IMG/VR virus record: IMGVR_UViG_3300001450_000121
Span: 1-34,549 of that record
Reading direction: 5' to 3' (one strand)
DNA from: a virus
DNA length: 34,549 nt
Shown here: one piece after another, positions 4,801 to 26,854 of the stretch
How positions within the stretch are numbered: the first letter of the stretch is position 1
Layout of the letters: every line of letters starts with the position of its first letter
Notes under the pieces: generated by a model
What the model was told of the DNA's origin: nothing
Seen by the model: only the letters and a program-made list of their open reading frames with translations
Database searches by the model: none
Position numbers and translations under genes: made by a program

Positions 4801-5512
4801 AGTAATAATAGATGTTTTAGAAACAGTAAAAGGTACAGATGACAAGTTTTACTTTAAAGCAGAAGTAAAAGACAAGACCGCAGGTGAGCTATTTCAAAAG
4901 AAAATCTTAATTAGACATGAAGATATATTTAATAGCCCGACTAGAACATTTAGCACTTCTTTAGCAGGAATACTTTTTGGCATTGGATCTCTAGACGCAG
5001 CCGGGGCACTAAATCTTGCAGCCCGAGCAGTATTTGGTGGCGGTCAAGCAGGTGGAGCGCTGACAGGTACAGTTAATTTTGCAACAAGTTTCTTGTCGTT
5101 TCTAATAGAAAACCCAGAGACTGTATTTATGAGACCAGAAGTCAACCCTTTTGTTCGTGCATTTAAATCTACTCGAGGACGAGGACTGGCGGGTGTTATG
5201 AAAGGTATTAACTTTAACTGGCTTGAGGACAACATTCCTTGGGAAACTGACTTTAATGCTCGTGCACCAATTGGATGTAACATAAGCTTTCAGTTTGATG
5301 TCATACATGACTTACCACCCGGTCTTGATCACACTGGCTATAACAGAGCACCACTCTATAATGTTGGTGAAATAATGAGAAGCATATCAGGCGACCCTTA
5401 CGAAGAAGTCATATCAGAATCAGAACTTAACTTTAGAAAAGCAGGTAATCGAGGCGTTTTCCTTGACGGTGAACAGTATAGAACTCAAGGCACAGAAAAA
5501 GGTAAGAAATAA
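1856..5512 (+). CDS. Large baseplate / tail structural protein (1218 aa)
   Basis: A 1218-aa structural protein. The ATG at 1856 follows an AAGGAACAAGG-type ribosome binding site inside the previous gene. The first ~350 residues are polar and Gly/Asp/Asn-rich with EF-hand-like DQDGDGRRDE near residue 245. Around residues 728-780 there is a segment (PVQTYQSTTRSLSVGFTVYA, then a WYKINKLVTMLYP stretch) typical of baseplate/tail proteins that pair with LysM/gp53-type proteins. A small beta-rich region with alternating charged residues lies near 960-1025. The C-terminal segment (FDVIHDLPPGLDHTGYNRAP) also has the look of phage tail proteins. It is followed at once (TAATG) by the gp53/LysM-like gene. 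The structural role is well supported by context; the exact baseplate position is not. Confidence 0.7.
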   Translation: MARETFKDFLRNESLPAGKENPEGMISYTVDGIAAFGDSSGLGLETNTGQPLVGFDAADPDSGLTGRFLDHIVREENNFYNFKRGNSEVNAGNRGDHLQDQDSFLAGPSDPKGLPYVPQGTVEDGLLEEYSNSRNFEDITSNNPNTVSLDSIISKVDGAPRGPGSENGPFNQRRGANELLKDLYVSEDGTGPTDFVVKASVESLKRNNRFNIENNYLETNTFPARSDIDSNINMTIPGYRGIDQDGDGRRDERIVSSTSLDDLKNIGSSLLLRASGYDIKTSPGKDLEVVESTLSNIASGDLEESLYTQKKVMSRLLAMNATGFPATDPLGVSVRAGTGIDLDYSNEESKNSNSFGSTYNDAVRFTDYSRALRIKTAFRLVAVVSAAKILFESITDELSTKEIKKIKEDIKTIAKKTDKVQAGKLILGQSRNSTRFVAKNYFMNNLLTVTSFNYEECFNEGLFALFGNKSGEDLTKDALDANSTSKGASVRKLDFSDSPGFWHAVSNSIMNSLDGFSGNLENIGAPNNGDTESEKAAISRLLNENDKILKVVNIIAIIGEKSLHAKNAVKNAKLKNIELTRDPDALPNLPGHRVGKSRIGKQPGSSSAMNPSMGNETTLAWEQSSVPSMYLLPMNIIRAAQTLNNSFSGENPMHGMLGSRMVRNTYTGLDTDGSAARIPGRVAKIVEDRLDAEYVPFYFHDLRTNEIVSFHAFLSQLTDTISPQYTQTSAFGRMDPVQTYQSTTRSLSVGFTVYATNREDFDEMWYKINKLVTMLYPQWTAGTLVQGSRGDLFGDPPSFYQPMSQVIGASPLIRLRVGDVIKSNYSKFGLARTFGIGDTGINARINEKTSGALSDPTTIGGSIFSEIVTVVREAAITILVGVFGSPQGLLQMLSTDAQEIESVMGRVAALGATDAAASALSEILVNGFANPLMTAQIIDNMKDPNVSGEDKNLPKAFKYLNPNFIDGYFCEDDGKTYFTTKRVIIDVLETVKGTDDKFYFKAEVKDKTAGELFQKKILIRHEDIFNSPTRTFSTSLAGILFGIGSLDAAGALNLAARAVFGGGQAGGALTGTVNFATSFLSFLIENPETVFMRPEVNPFVRAFKSTRGRGLAGVMKGINFNWLEDNIPWETDFNARAPIGCNISFQFDVIHDLPPGLDHTGYNRAPLYNVGEIMRSISGDPYEEVISESELNFRKAGNRGVFLDGEQYRTQGTEKGKK

Positions 5513-5802
5513 TGGGTATATCTAGATATAATTTTGTTAAAAGAATTCCAGGTGGAATCTCAATTAGCAGCGCTAGTTTTGTAATATTTAATGCTGTTTC
5601 TAGAGGCATAATTTCTACAAACAACATTGTAATGGACGAAGGTAGAAGATTAGACCAAATAGCAGGAGAACAATACGGCGATGCCGGGTACTGGTGGGTT
5701 ATTGCAGCTGCAAGTGGGATTGGATGGGGTCTTCAAGTTCCGCCTGGAACACTTGTAAAGGTTCCAAATTCTTTAGATAAAGTAATAGGATTGCTGATAT
5801 GA
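5512..5802 (+). CDS. Baseplate wedge protein, gp53/LysM-like
   Basis: A 96-aa protein with a LysM/tail-protein-X-type core at residues 45-86: RRLDQIAGEQYGDAGYWWVI, followed by a Gly-rich turn and QVPPGTLVKVP. The pattern D-x-I-A-x-x-x-Y-G-D, an aromatic WWVI helix and a closing PPGT-LVKVP strand is typical of the small LysM-like proteins of contractile tails (T4 gp53 relatives), which bind in the baseplate wedge or hub periphery. The start codon overlaps the upstream stop (TAATG) behind AAAGGTAAG, and its own stop overlaps the next gene (ATGA), so the three baseplate genes are translationally coupled. Confidence 0.75.
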   Translation: MGISRYNFVKRIPGGISISSASFVIFNAVSRGIISTNNIVMDEGRRLDQIAGEQYGDAGYWWVIAAASGIGWGLQVPPGTLVKVPNSLDKVIGLLI

Positions 5803-8800
5803 GTAACAGTTCTGATCTTAGAAACTATAACGTTGCTTTTGAAATATTTCTTGATGCAATTGATCAATACAGCAAGTTTGTTACCGGACTAGACAGCGGT
5901 CTTTTTAGAAGGTACGACTTAGAGCAAACGCAAAAATTTCCTGATCAAGAAGATGAAGAATCAAAAAAGCTTTTAACAAGTATTTTAGACAGGACTGTTG
6001 GTGCTCATTCTTTTCTTGGAATGGAAACAGTATTAGAAAAGATAGCGGTGACAGACAGACGCGATTTTATTCTAAGCTGTTATTCTTTTGGCACAGGAGA
6101 TATCAAGCACAATCAGACTTTTGAAAATGAATCTTTGAGAGCGTCTGGCACCTTGGAACCAGAAGATTCTTTGATCTCAATTTATGACGTAGTTAATACC
6201 AACTTTAAAAAGATCGATCCCAAGCTAACTGCACTACCTGAAGATTTTATAAATCAAGCTACAAGCCCTAGCGAAGTTCATCGATTTGAAAAACCTACAC
6301 TTTCTGCCCATGTTATTAGAAAGTCTCAATACAGTCCTACAAACAGACAAGCAAGACATTTACCTATCTTTTTAAATGCAATTAGTGACATTGAGATGTC
6401 AAGGTGTACTCCCTACTTAGATGTAAAATTCATTCACTCGAGAAATTTGGCCGCAGGTCTAGACATTATTGCAAATCCAAAAATGTCGTACACGAGGCTT
6501 TTTAGGTTTGCAGCAAATGATACTTTTGATAATACAACTCCTTTAAATAGTAACTTAACAGATGCAAGTGAAATCGGACTAGATAGTTTTTCTTATATGA
6601 ATCTTTTTACTTCACCACAAACAATGGTCAATGCTGATATTAATTCAAGTAACAACTCTTTTTCTAATATTACAGCATTTTCAGGAGAAGACGAAGATGA
6701 AAGACCTACTTCTAAAAATGTACTAGATCCTTTTCAACCTTTACTTTCTTTAATATCGTTTGATGTAACAGAATCAGGTGGTGGCAAAGAAGGTTTTATG
6801 TCTAGCAAGCGTGCTTCTTTAAAAATTAAACTACATGACAAATCTAGAATGGCTGATATATCTCCTCTGATAGCAGTTAACGAATTTGCATTTACAGATT
6901 TTTCTATAGAGTTTGGATGGTCACACCCAGACAGCAAGCTGACTTCTGATAATACTATCGGTAAATACATTAACAACCTTAGAAGCATCAATACCTACGA
7001 TCTAATAAGTTCCAGCTACAGTTTTGGAAAAGATAATACTGTAGATATTACCCTTGAGTTGGTAACGAAAGGTGCAAGTCACATTATACCACTTGTATCA
7101 GCGTATAGCGGATATTATCAAAACATTGGTGTTTTTAAGGGTGTTATAAATGCTGCTATCGGTGTAATGGAAGGTCCTAGCGGAGAAAAAAATATTAGAA
7201 AAAGAAGAGATTTATTACCAAAAGTAAGACAGCGGCAAACAAAGTTGTCTTCGCTTAGTAGATTAACACCTTTTGAAAACTTAAAAAAAATCAAAGCGAT
7301 GGTAGATCAAATAGACGCTTCTAATATTACCAAAGACATAGAAGAATTTTATAAAGATTTAAAAACTTTGCTTAACGAAGGCGCTCAAGATACAAGCGGA
7401 GAAACCATAGATCCAGGCATAAGTGATAAAGTTACTGGATTTTTTGCGTCGCCAGGTGATGTTTTTGAATCAAAGTGGGCAAGTTTAGATAACACCCCAG
7501 ATCCTTTTGCATATGCTTCCAGGTTTGAAGACGTTCAAACTTCGGCTTTCTGGCGAGGTGAAAGTAAAACACCTCATGATTCTTTTAGTACTTTTTATAG
7601 TAATCCACAAATGCCTCATGTTACTCTCGGAAAGTTAATTACAAAATTTGTTGCATTTCCTCTTTCTACTTGTGGTATCTATGACGAAGTTCAAGTTTAC
7701 TTTTATCCTGTTAATCACCACGCTGCTGGTGCAAGAAGGCATACAACAGCCAGCTTACCAATAGATCAAAACTTGCTTAAAGAGCAAATAGATAAAAAAA
7801 TATCAAGTATTGACTCAAATGAAAATCCAAATGCAGGGCTTGCTGTTAATGGGTTTATTGCACTATGTCAAAACATTCTGAGAAGAAAAGAAATTTCTGC
7901 TTATGGTTTGCAAGAAACAGGCGGCACACATACAGGTTTTCCTGCTGATAATATTAAAAAAGGATTTTTAGAATCATCTCATGAAGAAAAAATTGAATTT
8001 TTAACCTCACTAGAAGCAGCCGCGCCTAGCTCTCCAACTGGTGCAATTGAAGATGAATTATGGCAGTATAAATATACACCTACACCTGGCGCAAGTCCTG
8101 AGGTGGTGTCAGAAGAAGAGCAAGAAGCAATTAATAAATTTTTAAAAGGAATTGAAGAACTAGGCGTTCAAAGTTTAGCAAATAAATTAAGTAGCATATA
8201 CGGACCGGGCCGCGCAGCCGGTGAAGCTAGCGATGACGGAGTATCTTTGCTTGCAAGAGGAACTACATTTCAGCCAATTGATTTACAAGTATTTTTTGAA
8301 GTGACACCTATCGTTGATGAAGCTGCAATTGGAGAGTCTGTTGCTTTGGACTCTTTTTCTAAAATACTTAAAAGTATTAAAGGAGAAGACATTTTAGATA
8401 TTGACGGGCTTCTAACAGACAAGGTGCTTTTAAGAATACATATATTTGATAGCAATACTCTATCAAATTCAGATCCAGCTGTGTTGGGGCTAGATACAAA
8501 CGAAGACGGCGCAATTATTGAAGGGTCTGAAACTGACTCTGCAACTTCAGAACTGATGGAAGAAGCTAGAAAAAATAAAAACAACTTTGACTTTTGGAAG
8601 TCAATACTAAATTCTAAGTTTCCAACAATTACACATGGCCAGTCTAGTAGTGTTATTAAGAGTATTGATATTAATTCAAATATACCCAGCAACATATTAG
8701 ATATGTACATAGTCGATTCATACGAACAAAGAATTGGAAAACAGACAGCCGAGGAGGCTGAAAATCAATGGGATGAAGCGACATTTTTTCCTTCAAATGT

Positions 8801-9029
8801 TTCTATTCAAATGATGGGAAACCCAATGATTAACAGAGGCACTGTTTTCTTTGTTGACTTTATGACAAAGACCAATTTGGACAATTTATATGCGACCAAT
8901 CAGGTTACTCATACCATCGCTCCTGGTAATTTTACAACAACATTAAGTTGTCTTCCATACGGTCAAGGAAGAGTTTCAGCAGCAAGAAATAATATGCTTA
9001 AGAAGATAGATGATCTTGCAAAAAGCTAA
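5799..9029 (+). CDS. Baseplate hub-like structural protein (1076 aa)
   Basis: A 1076-aa protein overlapping the gp53-like gene by 4 bases. Near residues 308-400 it has a beta-rich hub-type region (SLISFDV..., SLKIKLHDKSRM, FSIEFGWSHPD). The C-terminal ~75 residues (SIQMMGNPMINRGTVFFVDF, then YATNQVTHTIAPGNFTTTLS) match the general pattern of hub proteins of contractile tails (gp27/gpD type), where a final barrel reads G-N-P-x-I-x-x-G and V-x-H-x-I-x-x-G-x-F-x-T. It would form part of the central hub around the spike. No lysozyme or spike motif is visible. The insert between ~440 and 1000 is large compared with T4 gp27 (391 aa), so extra domains are likely. Confidence is good for a structural role and moderate for hub. 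Confidence 0.65.
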   Translation: MSNSSDLRNYNVAFEIFLDAIDQYSKFVTGLDSGLFRRYDLEQTQKFPDQEDEESKKLLTSILDRTVGAHSFLGMETVLEKIAVTDRRDFILSCYSFGTGDIKHNQTFENESLRASGTLEPEDSLISIYDVVNTNFKKIDPKLTALPEDFINQATSPSEVHRFEKPTLSAHVIRKSQYSPTNRQARHLPIFLNAISDIEMSRCTPYLDVKFIHSRNLAAGLDIIANPKMSYTRLFRFAANDTFDNTTPLNSNLTDASEIGLDSFSYMNLFTSPQTMVNADINSSNNSFSNITAFSGEDEDERPTSKNVLDPFQPLLSLISFDVTESGGGKEGFMSSKRASLKIKLHDKSRMADISPLIAVNEFAFTDFSIEFGWSHPDSKLTSDNTIGKYINNLRSINTYDLISSSYSFGKDNTVDITLELVTKGASHIIPLVSAYSGYYQNIGVFKGVINAAIGVMEGPSGEKNIRKRRDLLPKVRQRQTKLSSLSRLTPFENLKKIKAMVDQIDASNITKDIEEFYKDLKTLLNEGAQDTSGETIDPGISDKVTGFFASPGDVFESKWASLDNTPDPFAYASRFEDVQTSAFWRGESKTPHDSFSTFYSNPQMPHVTLGKLITKFVAFPLSTCGIYDEVQVYFYPVNHHAAGARRHTTASLPIDQNLLKEQIDKKISSIDSNENPNAGLAVNGFIALCQNILRRKEISAYGLQETGGTHTGFPADNIKKGFLESSHEEKIEFLTSLEAAAPSSPTGAIEDELWQYKYTPTPGASPEVVSEEEQEAINKFLKGIEELGVQSLANKLSSIYGPGRAAGEASDDGVSLLARGTTFQPIDLQVFFEVTPIVDEAAIGESVALDSFSKILKSIKGEDILDIDGLLTDKVLLRIHIFDSNTLSNSDPAVLGLDTNEDGAIIEGSETDSATSELMEEARKNKNNFDFWKSILNSKFPTITHGQSSSVIKSIDINSNIPSNILDMYIVDSYEQRIGKQTAEEAENQWDEATFFPSNVSIQMMGNPMINRGTVFFVDFMTKTNLDNLYATNQVTHTIAPGNFTTTLSCLPYGQGRVSAARNNMLKKIDDLAKS

Positions 9030-9077: not shown

Positions 9078-10157
9078 ATGCTTCAAAAGAACTACAAAAA
9101 GAAAAGTATAGGTACACTACAAATAAATTCAGAGTTTACTAGATCTGGTAAAAATAAGATTGTAAAAATATCAAATTCTGATGATGTTTTGTCTATTAGA
9201 AATATTAATAAGTTTAGATCTTTATCTAATCTAGAAACAATCAAAGACTATAGAGGATATTTTTATAACTTTTCTAGAGATCTTAATATCATTAATACAG
9301 ATGTCAGATGGGATCTATTATTAGGTAATGGTATTTGTGACAAATATGACAAAGATCTTTTAAATAAAATTAAATTTTCTATTGATAAAATTACTTCATA
9401 TCATACTAATATTCTTAATAGAAGAAAGACACTATACGAAAATCTAAACAAGATTCTGGATGAGTCAGGTAATGAAATTGAAGTTCCGGAATATTCACAT
9501 GATGGAGTGACAGGCAGAACTACAATTAAAAAAGGTTTTAACTTTTTAACTTCTAAAAAAGAGTTTAGAAAAAAATGCAAATCTAAAAATAAAGATAATA
9601 TGCTGGTCAGTATTGACTTTAAGGCATGCGAGCCTAATCTATACTTAAGATCTTTGGGCATAGAAATATCAGACCCTGATATATACGAATTTTTATCTAG
9701 TAAGCTTAATTTAGATGTAAAAGATAGAAGTACTTTAAAGAGAGGAATACTGTCAGTTTTGTATGGAGCGTCTGACAGCACTTCAAGTAAATTACTAGGA
9801 AGTAAAAAACAAAATCTAGACAAGATAAAAAAATTCTTTAAAATCAAAGAGGTAGAAGAAGAACTAAAGGCCCAGTTTCAGAATACAAATACAATTTACA
9901 ACTTATACGGGAGACCAATACACTCAGACAAAAGCATTCTTAACAAGTGGATTCAATCATCAGCAGTAGATTTTTGTAGTTTAGCATTTTTAAATTTTGT
10001 GGAGGAATTTAATTTAAATGTTTGCTACTTAGTTCATGACGATATGGTTGTAGATATTAGTAAAGAAGAATATGAAAAAATAAAAGACATAACCGAGCTT
10101 TATGAACCTGACGCAAAATTAAGCCTTCCCGTAGAAATTACTATTCTAAACGCCTAA
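9078..10157 (+). CDS. Minimal family A DNA polymerase (palm/fingers, no exonuclease)
   Basis: A 359-aa protein with the ordered motifs of family A DNA polymerases: TGR at 145-147; motif A SIDFKACEPNLYLR with Asp180 and Glu185 (equivalent to E. coli Pol I D705/E710); motif B DRSTLKRGILSVLYG with Arg217, Lys221 and Tyr229 (R754, K758, Y766 equivalents; the F762 position is Leu); LYGRP at 276-280; Gln293 in WIQSSAVDF; motif C LVHDDMVVDI with His320-Asp321. The usual HDE is HDD. There is no 3'-5' or 5'-3' exonuclease domain, and the thumb region (1-145) is short. It is very AT-rich and sits between a baseplate gene and an unknown gene, away from the replication cluster. No ribosome binding site precedes the ATG. 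All catalytic residues are present, so activity is plausible; its role (repair, priming, lesion bypass) is unknown. Confidence 0.85.
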   Translation: MLQKNYKKKSIGTLQINSEFTRSGKNKIVKISNSDDVLSIRNINKFRSLSNLETIKDYRGYFYNFSRDLNIINTDVRWDLLLGNGICDKYDKDLLNKIKFSIDKITSYHTNILNRRKTLYENLNKILDESGNEIEVPEYSHDGVTGRTTIKKGFNFLTSKKEFRKKCKSKNKDNMLVSIDFKACEPNLYLRSLGIEISDPDIYEFLSSKLNLDVKDRSTLKRGILSVLYGASDSTSSKLLGSKKQNLDKIKKFFKIKEVEEELKAQFQNTNTIYNLYGRPIHSDKSILNKWIQSSAVDFCSLAFLNFVEEFNLNVCYLVHDDMVVDISKEEYEKIKDITELYEPDAKLSLPVEITILNA

Positions 10158-10165
10158 GTAATCTT

Positions 10166-11677
10166 ATGGCAAATAAAAAAATAAAATCAGAATCTTACGG
10201 TACACAACGTCAAACTTGGGCCGGAGGCGCAGGTGCTGGAAGCAACTTCCAGCACGGAAAAGACTTAGGTACACACACAAGAGGTAGTCTAGGTACAAGA
10301 GGCGCAGACTCAAACTGGAGCAGGGCTAGTCAAGCTGTTATGCCTTTAAATGCTTTTACACATTTTTTAGATGAAGACGAAGACGAAGAGTTTGATGAAG
10401 GCTACACTGTTGAAGACTCAAAATATGATCTTCAAGAAATTCTTCGATTGAACGAAGATTTAAGTGATGTAGGTGCTGCCGCTGTAGACATAGCAACAGA
10501 CTTAGGCGGTGACTTTGCTGCATCTGCAATTTCTGGATTAGATGTTACAAGAACAGTTGGGACAGGCACTAGTTTACTGTTTATTACTAAAAATATTTAT
10601 GAAATTAAAAAAGGTCGCGAAAGAGCAGATGAAGTTATTCGCCAGTTTTTAAACAGGCCAACGAACGAAGCTGCAGAAAAAATGGCAGACATATTTGATT
10701 CACTTATAACAGATGTCATTGACCTTTTTCAAAGAACAATAGAGATAATACCTGATAGTTTGCCTATAGAAGAGTTTGGCTCAATAGCAATTTCTATAGC
10801 CCAGAATTACAAGCGCGCAGCTAAATTTTTAAAGGCTTATTTTACGTTTAGAAAGGTAGATTCTATCACAGCTGTCGGCAAAAAATTTACAGCTAAGTCT
10901 GTGCGAAGAGTCTCTTTTTACGGAATTGTGTCACCCATTATTAAGATGGTAATGAAGTTATTTAACTCTGACTTTGTTCCTGAAAAAGTCGAAGAAAACA
11001 AGTCTATAATCATGGGTACAATCTCAAGAATTGTATTGCTAGGCGATTTAATGGAAGACTACCATATTCAAAAAGAAGTAGCTATAGGTATCGGAATACC
11101 AGAAGAAGATTTTGTTTACAGACACAGAATTTTACAGCCGGGTTCAGAAGCTGATGGTTACGATTATGAGTCACCAAGAAATGAACTTCCTTTTGAAGAT
11201 AGAGTAGAAGAAGAAATAGAAATTAGAAGAGAAGAAATGGAACAAAGACAACCAGAGTATTCAGAAGGACTATTTGGACCTGACGCAGATGATGATCTTT
11301 CTGAACCTGTTGTCGTTGGTGGCGCAGCAGCTGGCGCCGCATCTCAAAATTCTACACTTGGAAACGAATTCTTAAGAAAACTTTTCATATCAAAACCTGG
11401 AGACGAAGGTCTTTTTAGAGAGTCTTTAGAAAATAAATCTTTACTTTACTTAATAGAAGAAAAAGATTCAGAGTTAGATGAAGAACTAGAAGAAGATGAA
11501 ATAAACGAATTCTCAGGCGCCGGAGGCGGAGCTATAGGAACACTACCGCTAGGTATGTCGACAAAAGGCCCAAAGGGAAAAACCAGCGCGACATCAGGTG
11601 GCACCGCGTTCCCTTACAGTAAGAAAAGTAGAACTGCTTTTAAGAAGTACGCTAAGAAGTCATTTGGCGGAAAATAA
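10166..11677 (+). CDS. Unrecognised acidic protein with Gly-rich, basic C-terminus
   Basis: A 503-aa protein starting 8 bases after the polymerase stop. Visible parts: a Gly/Ser-rich N-terminus (residues 15-50); a strongly acidic stretch near 68-80 (DEDEDEEFDEGYTVED); an Ala-rich hydrophobic and helical core (about 95-300); a charged helix near residues 350-365 (VEEEIEIRREEMEQRQ); an acidic patch (ELDEELEEDEINEF); then GAGGGAIGTLPLGM and a basic tail KKSRTAFKKYAKKSFGGK. The alternation of acidic and basic low-complexity parts suits a virion-internal or scaffold-type protein, but I recognise no family. It may be co-transcribed with the polymerase and ends before the promoter of the ssb gene. 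Confidence 0.65.
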   Translation: MANKKIKSESYGTQRQTWAGGAGAGSNFQHGKDLGTHTRGSLGTRGADSNWSRASQAVMPLNAFTHFLDEDEDEEFDEGYTVEDSKYDLQEILRLNEDLSDVGAAAVDIATDLGGDFAASAISGLDVTRTVGTGTSLLFITKNIYEIKKGRERADEVIRQFLNRPTNEAAEKMADIFDSLITDVIDLFQRTIEIIPDSLPIEEFGSIAISIAQNYKRAAKFLKAYFTFRKVDSITAVGKKFTAKSVRRVSFYGIVSPIIKMVMKLFNSDFVPEKVEENKSIIMGTISRIVLLGDLMEDYHIQKEVAIGIGIPEEDFVYRHRILQPGSEADGYDYESPRNELPFEDRVEEEIEIRREEMEQRQPEYSEGLFGPDADDDLSEPVVVGGAAAGAASQNSTLGNEFLRKLFISKPGDEGLFRESLENKSLLYLIEEKDSELDEELEEDEINEFSGAGGGAIGTLPLGMSTKGPKGKTSATSGGTAFPYSKKSRTAFKKYAKKSFGGK

Positions 11678-11741: not shown

Positions 11742-11780
11742 ATTGCACATTAAATATTGCACATTAAATTTTAAAGGAGA
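11742..11780 (+). promoter_or_regulatory. Putative autogenous translational operator in ssb leader
   Basis: Two exact tandem copies of ATTGCACATTAAAT (11742-11755 and 11756-11769) run into TTTTAAAGGAGA, so UUAAA elements repeat up to the Shine-Dalgarno sequence at 11773-11780. In phage T4 the gene 32 leader has UUAAA-type repeats beside the ribosome binding site to which gp32 binds cooperatively to shut off its own translation. The layout here is the same kind; the function is inferred by analogy. Confidence 0.5.
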
Positions 11781-11784
11781 AAAA

Positions 11785-12579
11785 ATGGCAATCGATTTCG
11801 ACGCAATTAAACGTAAACTAGAAAGACTTAGCGGCGCAGACAAGAGTCGCAACTCAAAATGGAAACCTGAAGAAGGTGAAGAACATACTGTCCGACTTAT
11901 CTCATTCCCGGATAATGACGGTCAACCCTTTAAGGAAGTACAGTGGTACTACAACATTCCGGGTTCTCGAGGTATGGTAGCACCTTACCAGTTTGGCAAA
12001 AAAGATCCTGTTCAGGAACTAATTAGCAAGCTTCGCGATGAGGGTTCAAAAGAATCCTACGAGATGGCAAAAAATCTCTACCCTAATATGCGCACCTATG
12101 CTGCTGTAGTAGTACGTGGTCAAGAAGATGAAGGAGTGAAGATTTGGGGCTTTGGAAAGACTGTTTATCAAAAGCTTCTTTCTATTATGTTAGATGAAGA
12201 CTACGGTGATATTACTGATCCTCTCGAAGGTCGCGATATTAAGGTTGTTTGTACTAAGCCTCCTGGTAAAAAGTACGCAATGACTGATGTAATGCCTCGC
12301 GGCAAGGTTACTAAGCTTTCTACTAAGTCAAAACAAGCTTCTGAGTGGTTAGAAAATATTCCAAAAGTAGAAGATCTTTACACGCTTAAATCTTACGACG
12401 AGATTTCTGGTATTCTTGAAAACTGGATTAACGGAGATGAAGAAACTGTTTCTAGTGAAGGAACAGCACATCGCTCAACACCGTCAAGTACAAATACAAC
12501 TTCTGATTCAACATCAAAGAAAACAGAAAGTGAAAGCTTTGGAAGTCTAGACGATGCGTTTGCAGACTTAATGGAATAG
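11785..12579 (+). CDS. gp32-like single-stranded DNA-binding protein
   Basis: A 264-aa protein resembling T4 gp32-type SSBs: an N-terminal helical segment (DFDAIKRKLERLSG), an OB-fold core containing EHTVRLISFPDNDGQPFKEV and VKIWGFGKTVYQKLLSIM, a Ser/Thr-rich linker near 225-250, and an acidic C-terminal tail (FGSLDDAFADLME) of the sort that recruits replication partners. The start at 11785 is fixed by AAAGGAGA eight bases upstream; a TTG-initiated extension to 11743 would run through the leader repeat and is unlikely. T4 gp32 uses a His-Cys3 zinc site, but only one Cys is present here, so the zinc site is missing. It opens the replication module and has its own promoter, leader and terminator. 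Confidence 0.85.
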   Translation: MAIDFDAIKRKLERLSGADKSRNSKWKPEEGEEHTVRLISFPDNDGQPFKEVQWYYNIPGSRGMVAPYQFGKKDPVQELISKLRDEGSKESYEMAKNLYPNMRTYAAVVVRGQEDEGVKIWGFGKTVYQKLLSIMLDEDYGDITDPLEGRDIKVVCTKPPGKKYAMTDVMPRGKVTKLSTKSKQASEWLENIPKVEDLYTLKSYDEISGILENWINGDEETVSSEGTAHRSTPSSTNTTSDSTSKKTESESFGSLDDAFADLME

Positions 12580-12684: not shown

Positions 12685-13866
12685 ATGCAAAAAGACAGCT
12701 TTACCAAAGACTTAATTAAATCACTAAATAAAGAAGCAGGGACAAGAGTTGCTTATAATCTATCTGAAGATGAAAGTCCTACTCACGTAAATAGATGGAT
12801 TAGCACAGGTTCAAAAATGCTTGACTGGATTTGCGCAAACAAGAAAGACGGCGGGCTTCCAGAAGGAAGAATTATTGAAATATTCGGACCGCCCTCTATT
12901 GGAAAATCACACATAGCTACTCAGATAGCAAGATCAACACAGGAAATGGGCGGAATTGTTGTTTATATTGATACTGAAAACGCAACTTCTGTAGAAAATC
13001 TTCAGATGTTAGGTTGTGATGTAACAAAACGATTTGTATATGTTGATACTCACTGTACAGAAGAAGTCTTATCAATTGCAGAAAAAACAATCTTAAAAGC
13101 AAAAGCATTAGATAAAGACATTCCTGTAACAGTTATTTGGGATTCTGTTGCAGCATCATCACCTAAAGCAGAACTTCTTGGTGATTATGATCAAAACTCT
13201 ATTGGCCTTCAAGCAAGAACAATCTCAAAAGGAATGCGAAAGATAACAGGTGTTATTGGTCAAACTAACAGTCTTTTTGTTATTTTAAATCAAGTTCGAA
13301 CAAAGATAGGCGTAATGTATGGTGACCCAACTACTACACCGGGCGGAAAAGCAATACCTTTTCACTCTTCAATTAGGATTAGACTCGGAGCTGGACAACA
13401 GATAAAAGATGGAGACGATGTAATAGGAATCCAGGTGTGGGCAAAAACAATTAAAAACAAAGTCGCGCCTCCTTTTAGAAAGGTAGACTTTCAAATTCAT
13501 TTTGGAAAAGGTATTGTAGAACATGAAGAACTATTTGATCTACTTAGAAAGTACTGCAAAGACAACGACGTCCTTAGCGAAGACGGAAATACTGCGTATT
13601 CTGTTCAGGGAGGCGGCGCCTGGAAGTCAATAACAATGACAAATACAAGTACCGGCGAGATAATTGCAGAAAAGAAATTCTACAAAACAGGGTTCAAAGA
13701 TATTATAAACAGTCCTGACTGGTCAGAAGCTGTAGATATTTTAACAGCAGCAGCAATGAAGAAAAAACTAGGTTCTATTGAAGATGTCGAAATAGATTCA
13801 GAATCTTATGAAGAAGTACAAGCACTTGCTCAAGAACTGGATATGGACTTAGATGTAGATGTATAA
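12685..13866 (+). CDS. uvsX: UvsX/RecA-like recombinase
   Basis: A 393-aa RecA-family strand-exchange ATPase. Walker A is GPPSIGKS at 68-75 (the RecA form is GPESSGKT). The strand after it carries YIDTENA (about 94-100), where RecA has the catalytic-Glu strand FIDAEHA. Walker B is VTVIWDSVAA (148-157), followed by LFVILNQVRTKIGVMYGDPT and a PGGKAI loop 2 region like that of RecA. The acidic C-terminus (ELDMDLDVDV) is typical. It would form filaments on ssDNA for recombination-dependent replication and repair alongside the gp32-like SSB. The start has SD AAAGGAC. The last 8 bases overlap the 5' nuclease gene, so the two are probably coupled. Confidence 0.9.
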   Translation: MQKDSFTKDLIKSLNKEAGTRVAYNLSEDESPTHVNRWISTGSKMLDWICANKKDGGLPEGRIIEIFGPPSIGKSHIATQIARSTQEMGGIVVYIDTENATSVENLQMLGCDVTKRFVYVDTHCTEEVLSIAEKTILKAKALDKDIPVTVIWDSVAASSPKAELLGDYDQNSIGLQARTISKGMRKITGVIGQTNSLFVILNQVRTKIGVMYGDPTTTPGGKAIPFHSSIRIRLGAGQQIKDGDDVIGIQVWAKTIKNKVAPPFRKVDFQIHFGKGIVEHEELFDLLRKYCKDNDVLSEDGNTAYSVQGGGAWKSITMTNTSTGEIIAEKKFYKTGFKDIINSPDWSEAVDILTAAAMKKKLGSIEDVEIDSESYEEVQALAQELDMDLDVDV

Positions 13867-14824
13867 AAATAGAATTCTGCTAATAGATGGACTAAATCTT
13901 TTTACAAGACATTTTATTGCAAATCCTGCAATGTCTGAAAACGGAGATCACGTAGGCGGAATATCTGGTTTTTATAATGCAATGATGAGACTTGTAGAAA
14001 AATGCAAACCTGAAGGTGTTGTAGTAGTTTGGGAAGGCGGCGGATCAAATAAAAAAAGAGGCCTTTATAAAGATTATAAAAAAGGATCAAAGCCACAAAA
14101 ATTAAACAGGTACTACGAAGGCGACATTCCTTCTACATATGAAAATAGAAACTTTCAACTAAAAACGCTGATATCTATTTTAGGCTGCATACCAGTTTGT
14201 CAGACTTACATATCAGGTGCTGAGGCTGATGACGCAATAGGGTATTTGTCAAAATATTTGCTTAAAGAAAAGAACAAAATCATAGTCTCTTCCGATCATG
14301 ACTTTTATCAGCTTGTCAATGAATCTACAATCATATGGTCACCTACGTTAAAAGGTTTTGTCGACAAAGATAAGGTAATTGAAAGATTTGGAATTCACCC
14401 TAATAATTTTTGCTTAGCAAAGAGTATCACAGGAGACACTTCAGACAACATCCCGGGGGTTAAAGGTGTAGGATATAAGAGTCTTTCCAAGAGGTTTCAG
14501 AAGTTAACAGAGTCTCACGAATATATGCTCTATGACATGGTCGTAGATGCAAAATCAATGATTAAACCTAAGGGTCCAAAAATCTTTGAAAACATTGTAA
14601 ATAACGAAGACTTAATTAAGAGAAACAACAAGCTAGTGCTTCTTGATACAAACAATCTATCTTTGAGTCATATGCAAAAAATTGAAAGTGATATTGAAAA
14701 TTTCATTCCTGCATGGAATAATATGAATATGCAAAAAATCTTAAAGGCATCATCTATAAGAACTATTGATCCCTTAAGGTGGAATTATCTTCTACGTAAT
14801 TTAAAAAAAGGCACTATTAAATGA
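13859..14824 (+). CDS. 5'-3' exonuclease / flap endonuclease (T4 RNase H-like)
   Basis: A 321-aa FEN-family nuclease. The metal-binding acidic residues are in order: Asp10 (LLIDGLNLF), Glu122/Asp124/Asp125 (GAEADDAIGYL), Asp146/Asp148 (VSSDHDFYQL) and Asp193/Asp196 (TGDTSDNIPGVKGVGYKSL), the last leading into the helix-hairpin-helix DNA-binding region. The usual FDG near residue 59 reads WEGG, a conservative Asp-to-Glu change, followed by the basic KKRGLYKDYKKG clamp. It should remove RNA primers and 5' flaps during lagging-strand synthesis. The gene overlaps uvsX (8 bases) and the helicase (4 bases). Its length suits a stand-alone phage FEN rather than a Pol I domain. Confidence 0.9.
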   Translation: MYKNRILLIDGLNLFTRHFIANPAMSENGDHVGGISGFYNAMMRLVEKCKPEGVVVVWEGGGSNKKRGLYKDYKKGSKPQKLNRYYEGDIPSTYENRNFQLKTLISILGCIPVCQTYISGAEADDAIGYLSKYLLKEKNKIIVSSDHDFYQLVNESTIIWSPTLKGFVDKDKVIERFGIHPNNFCLAKSITGDTSDNIPGVKGVGYKSLSKRFQKLTESHEYMLYDMVVDAKSMIKPKGPKIFENIVNNEDLIKRNNKLVLLDTNNLSLSHMQKIESDIENFIPAWNNMNMQKILKASSIRTIDPLRWNYLLRNLKKGTIK

Positions 14825-16197
14825 GTTATGAAAATCACTTTTCTAAGTACGGAAAAGACTTTCAAGAAAAAATATTTCAATCACTTTTAAAAGACCAGCA
14901 ATGGGCAACACAGATGGTTGAAGTAATGACACATGAATACTTTGAACTTAAGTATTTACAGTATTTGTGTGACAGATTCTTTGGGTTTTACTTAAAGTAT
15001 AAAAGTTTTCCAACACTAAGTCTTCTTGTTTCAATCATTAGAGACGAATTGACAGAAGGTGACGATGTTATTCTTAAAGGTCAAGTAATTGAATTCTTGT
15101 CCAGAGTAAAATCGTCACCAAACTTAGGCGACTTAGAATACGTTAAAGAAAAAACTCTTGACTTTTGCAAAAAGCAAGTTTTGCAACAAGCACTAGAAGA
15201 TAGCGTCAAGGCAATTCAAGGCGAAAACTACGAAGCTGTCTTAAACATTATGAAAGACGCAGTGTCTAAAGGATCAGGTTCGTCAGTTGGCCATATCTTT
15301 TTCAAAGACCATGAAGCAAGATTTGCAAAGATTAATAGAATTTGCTGCCCTACTGGTTTATCACATCTCGATGCAAAAGATGTATTTAACGGAGGTCTTT
15401 CTAGAGGAGAAATTGGTGTAATTGTTGCGCCTACGGGAGTAGGAAAGTCACACTGGCTTGTTGCAATGGGTGCTGAGGCACTCAGAAGAGGCAAAAATGT
15501 AATTCACTATACTTTTGAATTGTCAGAGACAGCTGTAGGCATTAGATATGACAGTAACTTAACTGGAATTGACTCTTCCGACATTGTTGAAAATAAAGAA
15601 AAAGTTCTAGAATATTATGAAAATAACAATCATGGAAGGTTAATTATTAAGCAGTACCCAACAGGTTCTGCCAGCATAGTAACAATTAGAAATCACATAG
15701 AAAAGCTCTCAATGAAAGACTTTGTGCCTTCTTTAATTGTTTTAGACTATGCTGATATTATGAGGTCAACACGTCAATATGATTCACTCAGGCATGAATT
15801 AAAATTGGTATATGAAGAATTAAGAAATCTTGCAATGGAAATGAACATTCCTGTGTGGACTGCTTCTCAAGCAAACAGAGAGGCATCAAATTCTGAAGTT
15901 GTTGGCCTAGAAAACATGTCCGAAGCGTATGGAAAAGCTATGGTAGCTGACATTGTTGTCTCTATATCTAGAAAACCCGCAGAAAAAGCATCTGGAATGG
16001 GAAGAATTTTTGTTGCTAAAAACAGAGCAGGAAAAGACGGAATTCTATTTCCTGTTAAAATAGATACAGCTAGATCAAAAATAGAGATAATAGAAGATGC
16101 TTCTCAAATGTCACTTGTAGATATTTATGAATCTCATAATACGGGAACAAAAGACATGTTAAAATCTAAATGGAAAGAGATAACAGCGAGCAAGTAA
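14821..16197 (+). CDS. Replicative DNA helicase, DnaB/gp41-like
   Basis: A 458-aa RecA-fold hexameric helicase. Residues 1-150 form a helical N-terminal domain like that of DnaB/gp41. The core has Walker A APTGVGKS (203-210), then NVIHYTFELSE, a Walker B strand SLIVLDYADIM, and a sensor-like PVWTASQANRE. The arginine-finger region near the C-terminus reads RIFVAKNRAGKDG. It unwinds the fork in 5'-3' direction in this family. The 4-base ATGA overlap with the upstream nuclease gene indicates coupling. No separate primase or helicase loader is visible in this window. Confidence 0.88.
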   Translation: MSYENHFSKYGKDFQEKIFQSLLKDQQWATQMVEVMTHEYFELKYLQYLCDRFFGFYLKYKSFPTLSLLVSIIRDELTEGDDVILKGQVIEFLSRVKSSPNLGDLEYVKEKTLDFCKKQVLQQALEDSVKAIQGENYEAVLNIMKDAVSKGSGSSVGHIFFKDHEARFAKINRICCPTGLSHLDAKDVFNGGLSRGEIGVIVAPTGVGKSHWLVAMGAEALRRGKNVIHYTFELSETAVGIRYDSNLTGIDSSDIVENKEKVLEYYENNNHGRLIIKQYPTGSASIVTIRNHIEKLSMKDFVPSLIVLDYADIMRSTRQYDSLRHELKLVYEELRNLAMEMNIPVWTASQANREASNSEVVGLENMSEAYGKAMVADIVVSISRKPAEKASGMGRIFVAKNRAGKDGILFPVKIDTARSKIEIIEDASQMSLVDIYESHNTGTKDMLKSKWKEITASK

Positions 16198-16208
16198 AAG
16201 AGAAAATA

Positions 16209-18758
16209 ATGTATACACATAATCAAGTTTTAGAATCATCTACAGAATACTTTAAAGGCGACGAGCTTGCTGCAAGTGTCTTTGCAGGAAAATATGCGCT
16301 TCAAGATGCAGAAGGAAATTTTTTAGAAAAAAACCCTGATGATATGCACAAAAGACTAGCATTAGAGTTTTCAAGGATAGAATCAAAACATCCTAATCCT
16401 ATGAGTTATGACGAGATCTATATCTTACTTAAAGAATTTAAGTATGTTGTGCCTCAAGGTTCACCTATGAGCGGGATAGGTAACGATCATCAAATACAAT
16501 CTATTTCCAACTGTTTTGTTATTGCTTCGCCTGAAGATAGCTACGGTGGTATTTTAAAGACTGATCAAGAACAAGTTCAAATTATGAAACGCCGCGGAGG
16601 AGTAGGTTTTGATGTGTCAAACATTAGACCAAAAGACATGCCTACTTCAAATGCAGCAAAAACAACGTCTGGTCTAGAGGTATTTTTAGATAGATTTTCC
16701 AATTCTTGCCGTGAAGTCGCGCAAGGAGGAAGAAGAGGTGCACTGATGATAACACTATCAGTACACCATCCACAAATAAGAGACTTTATTAGAATTAAGA
16801 GAGATCTGTCGCGTGTGACAGGAGCCAACATTTCAATAAGACTTACTGAGGAATTTATGTGCGCGGTCCGAGGGGGTGATCCAATAAACCTGCGTTTCCC
16901 AGTTGACACCAAAGAGCAGCCTATTGTAGAAGAATGGGTGAGTGCTAAAGAACTTTGGCATGAAATAGTTGAATCTGCTCACGCGGCAGCCGAGCCTGGC
17001 CTTCTGTTTTGGGATACAGCAAAGCGTATGACGCCGTCTGACATCTACAAAGCAGAAGGCTTTGGCTCGACCTCTACTAATCCTTGCGGAGAGATTATTC
17101 TTTCTCCCTATGACAGCTGCAGATTGATGCTTATCAACCTTACTTCTTTTGTTAAAAACGCCTGGATTGATAATGCTGAGTTTGACTTTGCACATTTTGG
17201 AGAAGTTTCACAAAAAGCACAGCGGCTCATGGACGACATGATCGATCTAGAAATAGAAAAAATTGATAAGATTCTTGCAAAGATTAAAGCAGACCCAGAA
17301 GCACTAGAAGTAAAACAACCAGAAATTAATCTCTGGAACAAGGTTAAAGAGCAAGCTGTAAATGGTCGCAGAACTGGTTTAGGTATTACAGGCATCGGCG
17401 ACGCACTGGCAATGCTGAGTATTAAATACGGTAGCAAGGCCAGTATTAGAATGACTGAATTAATATATCAAGCGCTCGCTGTTAATTCATATGTTTCTTC
17501 AATGGTTATGGCAAAAGAAAGAGGTGCGTTTGTAGTTCATGACCCAAGTAGAGAAGAAGATCATCCTTTCTTAGCTAGAATTTTTGATGCGATTGATGAG
17601 TCAGGAATTCTACCTTCAGCCGGACCTATGGGAGAACATTGGCCTGCAAGATACTGGAATGCTCATTTTGGACGTAGAAATATTGCCAACACTACAACAG
17701 CACCTGCAGGCTCTGTTTCTGTTCTCACTCAGACAACAAGCGGGATTGAACCAGCATTTATGCTTCACTACACTCGCCGAAAGAAGATTAACCCAAATGA
17801 TGCAGATGCCAGTGTAGACTTTGTTGATGACTTAGGGGACAAGTGGTCAGAGTTTCCAGTCTATCATCATGGTTTTAAGTCGTGGATGGAAACGCTAAGC
17901 GAAGAAGATTTAAAGATGTACCCAGTAGAAGATTTAGTAGGATCGAGCCCGTATGCAGGCGCAACTGCCAACGAGATTGACTGGGTTGCTAAAGTAGATC
18001 TACAAGCTGCTGCTCAAAAGTGGGTATGCCACGCAATTTCAAACACTACAAACCTTCCTGCTGACATTGATGTAGAAACTGTCAAGCAAGTTTATATGCG
18101 TGGCTGGGAAAGCGGTTGTAAGGGGATCACTGTCTATCGAGACGGAAGTAGATCTGGAGTACTAGTAAGCAAAACAGAAAAAACCAACGATGACAGGTCA
18201 GCAATGAAATTTGTTGACAATACAGCACCAAAACGTCCTGAGGTTCTTCCTTGCGAAATACATCATGCAACTATCAAAGGTGAAAAATGGACCATCTTAC
18301 TTGGTCTTCTAGCGGGCCGCCCATATGAAATCATCGGTGGGCTTAGTAAATATGTAGAAATACCGAAAAAGCACCGCTATGGAGAAATTAGAAGAAGACA
18401 AAGAAAAACAGTTCTTTCAAAGTATGATTTGCATTGTGGCGTCGATGAAGATGAGTTTGTTATAAAAGATGTTGTTTCTGTCTTTGACAATCCAAATCAT
18501 GCCGGGTATACTAGAACTATATCACTAGCACTTCGTCATGGCGCACCAATTCAATACATTGTAGAGCAGTTACAAAAAGATAGAGAAGCTGACTTGTTTA
18601 GCTTTAGTAAGGTAATAGCAAGATGCCTTAAAAACTACATTCCCGACGGATCAGTCGGTGGAGATAAAACTTGCGAACATTGTGGAGCTGAAGGAAGCTT
18701 AGTCTATCAAGAAGGATGTGTAACATGCAAATCTTGTGGAATGAGCAAGTGTTCTTAA
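16209..18758 (+). CDS. nrdJ: Adenosylcobalamin-dependent (class II) ribonucleotide reductase
   Basis: An 849-aa protein with class II RNR motifs: N-terminal MYTHNQVLESS; SISNCFVI with Cys102 (first redox cysteine); NPCGE at 291-295 (active-site Asn-Cys-Glu, radical cysteine Cys293) followed by SPYDSCRLMLINL (second redox cysteine); TGLGITGIGDALAML; and phosphate-binding TAPAGSVSVL. The C-terminal tail has several thiols (CEHCGAEG, then CVTCKSCGMSKC), used in this family for re-reduction and possibly zinc. It converts ribonucleotides to deoxyribonucleotides with a B12-generated radical and needs no NrdB or oxygen. I prefer ATG 16209 (AAGAGAA upstream; family-like N-terminus) over 16170, which overlaps the helicase and lacks an SD. 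A B12 supply from the host is implied. Confidence 0.88.
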   Translation: MYTHNQVLESSTEYFKGDELAASVFAGKYALQDAEGNFLEKNPDDMHKRLALEFSRIESKHPNPMSYDEIYILLKEFKYVVPQGSPMSGIGNDHQIQSISNCFVIASPEDSYGGILKTDQEQVQIMKRRGGVGFDVSNIRPKDMPTSNAAKTTSGLEVFLDRFSNSCREVAQGGRRGALMITLSVHHPQIRDFIRIKRDLSRVTGANISIRLTEEFMCAVRGGDPINLRFPVDTKEQPIVEEWVSAKELWHEIVESAHAAAEPGLLFWDTAKRMTPSDIYKAEGFGSTSTNPCGEIILSPYDSCRLMLINLTSFVKNAWIDNAEFDFAHFGEVSQKAQRLMDDMIDLEIEKIDKILAKIKADPEALEVKQPEINLWNKVKEQAVNGRRTGLGITGIGDALAMLSIKYGSKASIRMTELIYQALAVNSYVSSMVMAKERGAFVVHDPSREEDHPFLARIFDAIDESGILPSAGPMGEHWPARYWNAHFGRRNIANTTTAPAGSVSVLTQTTSGIEPAFMLHYTRRKKINPNDADASVDFVDDLGDKWSEFPVYHHGFKSWMETLSEEDLKMYPVEDLVGSSPYAGATANEIDWVAKVDLQAAAQKWVCHAISNTTNLPADIDVETVKQVYMRGWESGCKGITVYRDGSRSGVLVSKTEKTNDDRSAMKFVDNTAPKRPEVLPCEIHHATIKGEKWTILLGLLAGRPYEIIGGLSKYVEIPKKHRYGEIRRRQRKTVLSKYDLHCGVDEDEFVIKDVVSVFDNPNHAGYTRTISLALRHGAPIQYIVEQLQKDREADLFSFSKVIARCLKNYIPDGSVGGDKTCEHCGAEGSLVYQEGCVTCKSCGMSKCS

Positions 18759-25844: not shown

Positions 25845-26573
25845 GTGACTTTAGACGCTGAAAGTAAAATATTCCTACTTCAGTATAAACTCTACTATGA
25901 AGAAATAGATGTTGTTAACAATGAGTTTCAAAGAGGTCAAGCAGACCTTTTAATTTATGTAACGAATTTTAGAGAAAATCTTTCTGAAGAAGTAGAAGGA
26001 CAAAGAAAAGACTTTAATCAACACTTTTTTGGTGATAGAGATATAGAAGAAAAGTTAGATTTCCAACCCTCTCCTGTGCAAATACCAGAACAAACAGAAG
26101 AAAAAACAAATTTGACAGTAGCAAAATGGGCAAAAAATCTCTATAGAAAGATTGCAATAGCAACACACCCAGACAAGACAATGCATTTAGGTGTGCCTTC
26201 TCTCGTGAAAAAATTTAACAAGTATTACAACACAGCAATAAGCGACTACGCTGCTGGGCAGTATGATAGTTTGCTTTTTATTGGTTTTGAACTTGGGCTT
26301 GAAATCCCAGCTGAAAAAATAACTGAGCATATTGTTCCTAAAAATAGAGCGCTTTCAAAAGAAATTGAAAAGAAAAAGAAGAGTATTGCATATCAGTGGC
26401 AAAAAGTACCTGAAAAAGACAAAAACGAAGTGTTAGAAAAATACTTAACTTCCCTAGGTTACGTTTTTGACAAAAAAGACATAGAAGCAACAATTAAAAG
26501 AGTAAGAAAAATTAAAAGAAAAGTTGGTACTAGGCCGGTAAACATTATTAAAAAAAGAATAAAGAAAAATTAA
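25845..26573 (+). CDS. J-domain (DnaJ-like) protein
   Basis: A 242-aa protein starting at GTG 25845 with a TAGG-type SD. Residues 95-150 form a J domain: WAKNLYRKIAIATHPDKTMH with the HPD motif at 108-110, followed by a helix (LVKKFNKYYNTAISDYAAGQ) matching helix III. J proteins stimulate Hsp70 (DnaK) through HPD. Unlike DnaJ, the J domain lies mid-protein after a ~90-residue helical segment, and there is no G/F region or zinc finger. The basic C-terminus (RKIKRKVGTRPVNIIKKRIK) could bind nucleic acid. It ends the 23930-26573 operon. A role in recruiting host DnaK to virion assembly or replication is an inference. Confidence 0.8.
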   Translation: MTLDAESKIFLLQYKLYYEEIDVVNNEFQRGQADLLIYVTNFRENLSEEVEGQRKDFNQHFFGDRDIEEKLDFQPSPVQIPEQTEEKTNLTVAKWAKNLYRKIAIATHPDKTMHLGVPSLVKKFNKYYNTAISDYAAGQYDSLLFIGFELGLEIPAEKITEHIVPKNRALSKEIEKKKKSIAYQWQKVPEKDKNEVLEKYLTSLGYVFDKKDIEATIKRVRKIKRKVGTRPVNIIKKRIKKN

Positions 26574-26629
26574 TCCTTCTTTGTACAAGTTAAGGTATTT
26601 GCATATAATCAAATTACCACAAAGAAGGA
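26574..26629 (+). promoter_or_regulatory. Promoter and inverted repeat masking the ribosome binding site
   Basis: Promoter TTGTAC (26581-26586), 17-base spacer, TATAAT (26604-26609). An 11-base perfect inverted repeat, TCCTTCTTTGT (26574-26584) and ACAAAGAAGGA (26619-26629), pairs the -35 region with the SD of the next gene. Only transcripts reading through from upstream contain both arms. Confidence 0.6.
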
Positions 26630-26635
26630 GAAAAC

Positions 26636-26854
26636 ATGACACTTAGTGATTCAACAATTGCTCACGTAGCACAACTCGTACAGCTCGCAATGCTAACAGG
26701 GACCGACGTCGTAGATCATATGCGAATGATGACTTTGGTAGATATAGACGGAAGTCTCGAGCTAGATCCTGATTACGAACAGCGAAGTGAAGATAACGTG
26801 CAGCGAATGATACAGGAAGCAGTTAGAATGCAGAGCGAAGTTTCCGAGAGCTAA
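26636..26854 (+). CDS. Small conserved-looking acidic protein, unknown function
   Basis: A 72-aa protein with strong SD AAGGAG and its own promoter. Sequence: LSDSTIAHVAQLVQLAMLTG, a VVDHMRMMTLVDIDGSLELD stretch, then an acidic helix with RSEDNVQRMIQEAVRMQSE. It looks like a small helical protein without membrane segment or metal motif. Codon use is more GC-rich than neighbours, suggesting good expression. It is followed 5 bases later by the dUTPase-like gene and so leads the dNTP-supply operon. Family not recognised. Confidence 0.65.
   Translation: MTLSDSTIAHVAQLVQLAMLTGTDVVDHMRMMTLVDIDGSLELDPDYEQRSEDNVQRMIQEAVRMQSEVSES

What the first reader, a model, noticed from the sequence alone, without database searches (positions are those of the whole stretch)
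9078..10157. Exonuclease-free mini family A DNA polymerase inside a tail/structural region
Seen: all family A polymerase motifs in order (TGR, motif A D180..E185, motif B R217/K221/Y229, Q293, HD 320-321) in only 359 aa, no 3'-5' or 5'-3' nuclease domain, a reduced thumb, Leu at the Pol I F762 position and HDD instead of HDE. Known: Pol I Klenow fragment is ~600 aa and phage family A polymerases normally carry an exonuclease domain. Inference: a compact second polymerase, perhaps for repair, lesion bypass or a terminal synthesis step, of a type I cannot match to a described family.
Basis: partly seen in the sequence, partly recalled or inferred. Interest (0 to 1): 0.78.

Follow-up and report, generated by a model that had tools for sequence, protein, structure and literature searches.

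The report
Stand-alone second phage DNA polymerase
Many uncultured viruses of bacteria carry a miniature DNA-copying enzyme, stripped of its proofreading and primer-removing parts, always beside the same replication genes and, where the rest of the genome can be seen, usually alongside a separate main copying enzyme; it probably fills the gaps left when primers are removed.

Summary
The 359-aa gene at 9078-10157 is a stand-alone family A polymerase domain (PF00476, E 4e-9) with no 3'-5' or 5'-3' nuclease domain. It is not an oddity of this window. It belongs to a large clade of 343-466 aa proteins in uncultured phages. R147, D180, K221, Y229, Q293 and D321 (E. coli Pol I R668, D705, K758, Y766, Q849, D882) are kept in 135 of 135 members; E185 and R217 in all 115 of the near clade. 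dN/dS is 0.06-0.26. AlphaFold with 71 relatives gives pLDDT 93.

"Inside a tail region" is half right. The gene sits at the seam between a baseplate gene and the replication block. The order polymerase, gp32-like SSB, UvsX, FEN nuclease, DnaB helicase is kept in 58 of 58 testable loci. Searches started from SSB or FEN instead recover the polymerase in 30/34 and 25/26 cases.

It is a second polymerase. Long relatives also carry DnaE, Mel-JY01 a family B polymerase, Flavobacterium phage immuto a full-length PolA.

Most likely role (inferred, about 0.5): a Pol I split into two genes, mini-polymerase plus FEN, for primer replacement and gap filling. Recombination-coupled synthesis is the main rival. 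New clade and arrangement of a known enzyme; no paper found describes it.

The parts
9078..10157 (+). mini-PolA: stand-alone family A DNA polymerase domain, 359 aa, no exonuclease or FEN domain
   Evidence: PF00476 E 4.2e-9; 71-sequence AlphaFold model pLDDT 93.4, pTM 0.90; Foldseek best hits are Pol I, KlenTaq, Pol nu, Pol theta at E 1e-10 to 1e-8
9516..9518 (+). R147 of the TGR motif (E. coli R668)
   Evidence: 135/135 members; mapping
9615..9632 (+). motif A, D180 to E185 (E. coli D705, E710)
   Evidence: D 135/135; E 115/115 in the near clade, H in 10 of 20 far members
9726..9764 (+). motif B, R217-K221-L225-Y229 (E. coli R754, K758, F762, Y766)
   Evidence: K and Y 135/135; R 115/115 near; L/I at the 762 site in 115/115 near
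9954..9956 (+). Q293 (E. coli Q849)
   Evidence: 135/135
10035..10043 (+). motif C, H320-D321-D322 (E. coli H881-D882-E883)
   Evidence: D321 135/135; D322 not conserved; lies in the turn between predicted strands 314-319 and 322-328
5799..9029 (+). upstream neighbour, 1076-aa baseplate/hub-like late protein (function inferred from its place after the gp25-like gene 5512-5802)
   Evidence: same gene upstream in 52 of 53 testable loci; the 96-aa gene before it hits baseplate wedge PHROG 7145
10166..11677 (+). 503-aa protein of unknown function, starts 8 nt after mini-PolA; in other lineages the slot holds an HD-domain-like protein
11743..12579 (+). gp32-like ssDNA-binding protein (likely true start ATG 11785)
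   Evidence: PF08804 4.8e-11; PHROG 1192 9e-21
12685..13866 (+). UvsX/RecA-type recombinase
   Evidence: PF00154 9.3e-65; PHROG 97 1.7e-66
13859..14824 (+). separate 5'-3' exonuclease/FEN with its metal-binding acidic residues
   Evidence: PF02739 5.7e-26; D10, E122, D124, D125, D146, D148, D193, D196 in 59/59 loci
14821..16197 (+). DnaB/gp41-type replicative helicase
   Evidence: PHROG 19 1.5e-70; PF03796 4.9e-20
16170..18758 (+). ribonucleotide reductase large subunit, next gene of the block
   Evidence: PHROG 84 8e-97; PF02867 5e-85

Best explanation
The gene encodes an active, non-proofreading family A DNA polymerase that is the phage's second polymerase. Shown by comparison: a polymerase domain alone, active-site residues strictly kept, purifying selection, fixed place in a replication/recombination block, and a separate replicase in relatives. 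Inferred: together with the FEN nuclease a few genes downstream it makes a two-gene equivalent of bacterial Pol I. The main replicase (DnaE in the nearest long relative) and a DnaG-like primase make RNA-primed lagging-strand fragments. FEN trims the primer or displaced flap, the mini-polymerase fills the gap or extends by strand displacement, and a ligase (phage-coded in some relatives, otherwise the host's) seals the nick. It would act on SSB-coated DNA.
For: Fold and family. Catalytic residues kept. dN/dS 0.06-0.26. Fixed order polymerase-SSB-UvsX-FEN-DnaB in 58/58 loci and hub upstream in 52/53. Presence tested from SSB (30/34) and FEN (25/26) anchors. Separate replicase: DnaE in the 137, 202, 236, 107 and 79 kb relatives and cut at the ends of two more contigs; family B in Mel-JY01; full-length PolA in immuto. 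No second PolA or split-off PolA-type exonuclease in the DnaE carriers. FEN active site intact in 59/59. DnaG-like primase. ATP-dependent ligase in three relatives. The clade is one lineage apart from full-length PolAs, including immuto's own (support 99.5/99). In T4 the primer-removal nuclease is likewise a separate FEN-family protein that works with gp32 (PMC3012046).
Against: No biochemistry. In T4 there is no second polymerase and gap filling needs none, so a dedicated enzyme is not required in principle. UvsX is as constant a neighbour as FEN, so a recombination role fits nearly as well. Ligase was found in only 3 of 13 records searched, though host ligase may serve. The window record shows no replicase, being only 34.5 kb. 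The 206 kb contig G021 has a member but no DnaE or family B polymerase by these models, and its neighbours are not the usual ones.
Confidence: 0.5

Rival explanations
1. Recombination polymerase: an exonuclease-free, strand-displacing enzyme that extends UvsX-made D-loops or anneals and fills broken ends, as Pol theta and Pol nu do in animals.
For: UvsX and gp32-like SSB are near-invariable neighbours; Foldseek and profile hits include Pol nu and Pol theta, which also lack active proofreading; a SbcCD-like protein is in the 137 kb relative.
Against: FEN and DnaB are equally constant neighbours; Pol theta's helicase domain and large insertion loops are absent; hits to Pol I are as good or better.
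Confidence: 0.22
2. Repair or lesion-bypass polymerase working with phage base-excision enzymes.
For: The 137 kb relative encodes a Fpg/MutM-type and a HhH-GPD glycosylase; family A enzymes without proofreading often tolerate lesions (general knowledge).
Against: The glycosylases lie about 23 kb away in one relative, while the polymerase is fixed next to replication genes in nearly all loci; Leu at site 762 made Taq slower and more accurate (cited in PMC6302109), which does not suggest a bypass enzyme.
Confidence: 0.13
3. It is the main or only replicase of at least some of these phages, perhaps with a separate exonuclease subunit as in phages with split PolA.
For: G021 (206 kb) and several shorter contigs show no other polymerase by Pfam; polymerase-only PolA PHROGs and an 'exonuclease subunit' PHROG exist; a 313-aa polymerase of podophage Lau218 is a structural hit.
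Against: DnaE, family B or full-length PolA found in the other long, well-covered relatives; no PolA-type exonuclease in DnaE carriers; most contigs without DnaE stop before the place where it is expected, 30-40 kb downstream.
Confidence: 0.1
4. A decayed or repurposed polymerase fold without polymerase activity, for example a structural or regulatory replisome part.
For: Far-branch members change E710 to H, R754 to Y and H881 to Y together.
Against: Metal-binding D705/D882, K758, Y766 and Q849 are kept in 135/135 including the far branch; dN/dS low.
Confidence: 0.05

Closest known systems
Bacterial DNA polymerase I / Klenow fragment (PF00476)
   Same: All polymerase motifs, in order and residue by residue; predicted fold; polymerase and FEN functions encoded close together
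   Different: No exonuclease or FEN domain in the chain; 359 aa versus 605-928; FEN is a separate gene; L/I instead of F at site 762 in the near clade
Virioplankton Leu762 PolA groups (PMC6302109)
   Same: Leu at the 762 site
   Different: Those PolAs neighbour RecB-, SNF2- and UvrD-like helicases and lack RNR; this clade neighbours DnaB, UvsX, SSB, FEN and RNR
Polymerase-only or split PolA of other phages (PHROG 2573, PHROG 15971, podophage Lau218 313-aa protein)
   Same: Small polymerase without fused exonuclease
   Different: Weak similarity only; not tested whether those pair with a separate exonuclease as replicase; this clade coexists with a separate replicase and lacks a PolA-type exonuclease gene
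Flavobacterium phage immuto gp001, annotated 'DNA polymerase family A'
   Same: Same gene order with SSB, recombinase, 5'-3' exonuclease, DnaB, RNR; same clade
   Different: Far branch with H at E710, Y at R754 and Y at H881; coexists with a 777-aa PolA
T4 Okazaki repair set (RNase H/FEN, gp32, gp43, ligase)
   Same: Separate FEN-family nuclease working with gp32; UvsX and gp41-type helicase
   Different: T4's replisome has one polymerase, gp43 of family B, and gap synthesis is by the DNA polymerase (PMC3012046)
Jumbo phages with a second, split DNA polymerase III alpha (PMC7824862)
   Same: Two polymerases of different families in one phage
   Different: That case is a reduced Pol III beside family B; this is a reduced Pol I beside C, B or A. 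The passages read do not mention a mini-PolA

Membership tests
Family A DNA polymerase (PF00476) | Profile match above curated cut-off | tested here: met
   36.2 vs 34.3 bits; diverse members 37-62 bits
Family A DNA polymerase (PF00476) | Motif A Asp, motif C Asp and motif B Lys/Tyr, in order | tested here: met
   135/135 members, mapped on E. coli Pol I
Family A DNA polymerase (PF00476) | Palm-fingers-thumb fold | tested here: met
   pLDDT 93.4 model; Foldseek E 1e-10 to Pol I. TM only about 0.5 over the full query; palm/fingers core about 4.5 A in some hits; the thumb itself was not resolved
Family A DNA polymerase (PF00476) | Template-directed polymerase activity | not testable with these tools
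   needs purified protein
Full Pol I (polymerase + 3'-5' exo + FEN in one chain) | Fused 3'-5' exonuclease | tested here: not met
   no PF01612 in the window or in DnaE-carrying relatives
Full Pol I (polymerase + 3'-5' exo + FEN in one chain) | Fused 5' nuclease | tested here: not met
   FEN is a separate gene, 13859-14824
Split PolA replicase (polymerase subunit + separate exonuclease subunit) | Separate PolA-type exonuclease gene in the same genome | tested here: not met
   no PF01612 hit in six relatives or the window; DnaQ-type exonucleases not searched with a profile
Split PolA replicase (polymerase subunit + separate exonuclease subunit) | Is the genome's only replicase | tested here: not met
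   DnaE/PolB/full PolA present in relatives; window itself too short to tell
Leu762 virioplankton PolA groups | Non-ring helicase neighbours and no RNR | tested here: not met
   DnaB-type helicase and RNR adjacent
Pol theta/Pol nu repair polymerases | Fused helicase (theta) or family-specific insertion loops | tested here: not met
   359 aa, no helicase domain; the chain is too short for large insertions

The most novel reading that the evidence does not exclude
Large phages of several lineages carry a dedicated gap-filling or recombination polymerase, a stand-alone Pol I polymerase domain, as a fixed part of the SSB-UvsX-FEN-DnaB block, independent of whether the replicase is family A, B or C. 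Division of labour between fork synthesis and fragment maturation would then be a built-in and overlooked design of phage replisomes.
Probability: 0.5. Interest if true: 0.72.

Novelty: new variant of a known kind. Interest (0 to 1): 0.6.

Why it matters
Phage replisomes are usually described as having one polymerase, and PolA is widely used as a marker of a phage's replicase and lifestyle (PMC6302109). Here PolA would be misread as the replicase. The separate polymerase and FEN genes give a natural experiment on how Pol I's two jobs divide. The small exonuclease-free enzymes, with Leu, Ile or Phe at site 762 and a branch with His at the ribose-gate position, are ready candidates for enzymology, and cultured hosts exist for the far branch.

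Tried and rejected
Single-protein tblastn against 50,697 phage records found nothing for the window protein; distant members hit only other PolAs weakly. The first structure model, from 8 sequences, was poor in the N-terminal 100 aa (pLDDT below 50) and was replaced by the 71-sequence model. The idea that it sits in a tail region as a virion protein was dropped: the downstream block is replication. In Microcystis phage Mel-JY01 the annotated 'DNA polymerase I' first looked like the relative, but that gene is the FEN; the relative is the unannotated WWT39333. Prokaryote genomes: first scan none, second found two short MAG contigs; one (L272) has hub and SSB matches around it and is probably viral, the other (L273) matches only the HD gene. 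Promoter/terminator scan around the gene: promoter-like sites no more than in shuffles. Ligase motif search in the 137 kb relative: none. Literature searches gave no description of this clade; only open-licence papers are held.

Full report
What is there. The window is a 34,549-base IMG/VR virus record. The ORF at 9078-10157 (+) encodes 359 aa. Pfam gives DNA_pol_A at E 4.2e-9 and PHROGs 'DNA polymerase' at 1.1e-7. No nuclease domain is found. Residue 1 aligns near E. coli residue 521, so the protein is essentially a polymerase domain alone.

It is a family, not an accident. Scans of 2.9 million viral contigs found nine close relatives, then with a broader alignment 151 confirmed relatives, of which 80 were kept. 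Complete members are 343-427 aa, with longer stop-to-stop frames up to 466 in a far branch; two other ORFs, of 193 and 254 aa, look broken. In 74 of 74 full-length near members R147, D180, E185, R217, K221, Y229, Q293 and D321 are identical. With members found independently through their neighbours the count is 115 near and 20 far members: R668, D705, K758, Y766, Q849 and D882 are kept in all 135. dN/dS between pairs is 0.06-0.26. These counts include near-identical contigs, so they are not 135 independent lineages.

Structure. With 71 sequences AlphaFold gives pLDDT 93.4 and pTM 0.90. Foldseek against the PDB returns Bacillus Pol I fragment, Taq, Aquifex Pol I, Pol nu and Pol theta, E 1e-10 to 1e-8. 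TM is only about 0.5 and the overall rmsd large, so the outer parts are arranged differently or mis-superposed; partial matches over 230-280 columns have rmsd near 4.5 A. D180 ends a strand and D321 lies in a strand-turn-strand, as in the palm of family A enzymes. I could not measure distances, because coordinates are not released.

Setting. Upstream is a baseplate/hub-like gene; downstream are a 503-aa protein, gp32-like SSB, UvsX, FEN, DnaB and RNR. In the 80 relatives the order SSB-UvsX-FEN-DnaB-RNR after the polymerase is kept wherever at least three of these genes are visible, 58 of 58. Only L088 and L107 lack the neighbours. Since these loci were found through the polymerase, I also searched from the other side. 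Among SSB-anchored loci with enough upstream sequence, 30 of 34 have the mini-polymerase; among FEN-anchored loci, 25 of 26. A few contigs appear in more than one set.

A second polymerase. The 137 kb relative (its protein 68% identical to the window's) carries a 1179-aa DnaE, a DnaG-like primase and SbcCD, no family B polymerase and no other PolA. DnaE is also complete in relatives of 202, 236, 107 and 79 kb, and cut by the contig end in two more. In the complete cases it lies about 30-40 kb downstream of the mini-polymerase; most contigs without it end before that point. The exception is G021, 206 kb. In the far branch, Mel-JY01 has a family B enzyme and immuto a 777-aa PolA besides its 441-aa mini-PolA. 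So the same slot is kept beside replicases of families A, B and C. The window's own record is too short to show its replicase.

Phylogeny. In a maximum-likelihood tree the near and far branches form one clade (SH-aLRT 99.5, bootstrap 99) apart from seven PolAs from phage records and E. coli, including immuto's own long PolA. The near clade as such is weakly supported (82/39). Reference sampling was small, so the origin of the clade is open.

How it most likely works. Shown by sequence: active-site conservation, lack of nuclease domains, constant neighbours including a FEN whose metal-binding acidic residues are kept in 59 of 59 loci, and a separate replicase in relatives. Inferred: the polymerase and FEN together do what Pol I does in bacteria, replacing primers and filling gaps on SSB-coated lagging strands, with ligase finishing (phage ligase in 3 of 13 records searched). 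In T4 the corresponding nuclease is a separate FEN-family RNase H that works with gp32 (PMC3012046), without a second polymerase; here a dedicated enzyme may have taken the gap-filling step. The strongest rival is extension of UvsX-made recombination intermediates, because UvsX and SSB are just as constant. Repair and main-replicase roles are less likely.

Against the literature. Viral PolAs are normally described with a 3'-5' exonuclease and as the replicase (PMC9069017). Leu762 PolAs are known, but with other neighbours (PMC6302109). A second, reduced Pol III in jumbo phages is known (PMC7824862), and a marine jumbo group is marked by DnaE (PMC9123017). No paper found describes a stand-alone PolA domain fixed beside SSB-UvsX-FEN-DnaB; only open-licence papers could be searched.

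Verdict. It is a new clade and a new arrangement of a known enzyme, widespread and overlooked. Interest 0.6.

Noticed in passing
L036 7561-8784 (Mel-JY01 WWT39333), L044 1-1323, L045 9350-10705 and seven other far-branch loci: In 10 of 20 far-branch mini-PolAs three sites change together: E710 (ribose gate) to His, H881 to Tyr, and R754 to Tyr (9) or Val (1), while metal-binding and other core residues stay. May mark altered sugar selection.
   Followed up: partly
L034 1962-2552, L035 11091-11690 and many loci: In several lineages the slot between mini-PolA and SSB holds an HD-domain-like protein (PF01966 E 0.002 in L034, below cut-off) instead of the 503-aa protein of the window.
   Followed up: partly
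137 kb relative G005 (L018-L024), 42945-43781, 43759-44178, 17539-18336, 15752-17350, 14267-15001: The relative also encodes a Fpg/MutM-type and a HhH-GPD DNA glycosylase, a second FEN, a GroEL-like protein (by eye) and a sigma-70 factor.
   Followed up: partly
137 kb relative G005, 79407-82844 and 82872-85988: Two adjacent long proteins (1145 and 1038 aa) with similar starts that look like duplicated tail sheath genes.
   Followed up: no
137 kb relative G005, about a dozen small ORFs (e.g. 5051-5341, 93781-94110, 94118-94537): Many short, otherwise different proteins begin with the same stretch, MKITRRxLxxxIxEA, as if a shared N-terminal tag; unexplained.
   Followed up: no
L036 9569-10855 (Mel-JY01): The protein just before SSB in Mel-JY01 matches the S-adenosylmethionine lyase family (PF23780, 4.4e-10).
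   Followed up: no
LR756508.1 47412-48476: The 484 kb uncultured phage has a short, 575-aa frame matching DnaE catalytic and finger parts, reminiscent of the split Pol III of jumbo phages, besides a far-branch mini-PolA.
   Followed up: no
window 25845-34104: Downstream genes include a MazG-like pyrophosphohydrolase, thymidylate synthase, nucleoside deoxyribosyltransferase and a nucleotide-sugar epimerase; several 240-340 aa ORFs have no match.
   Followed up: no
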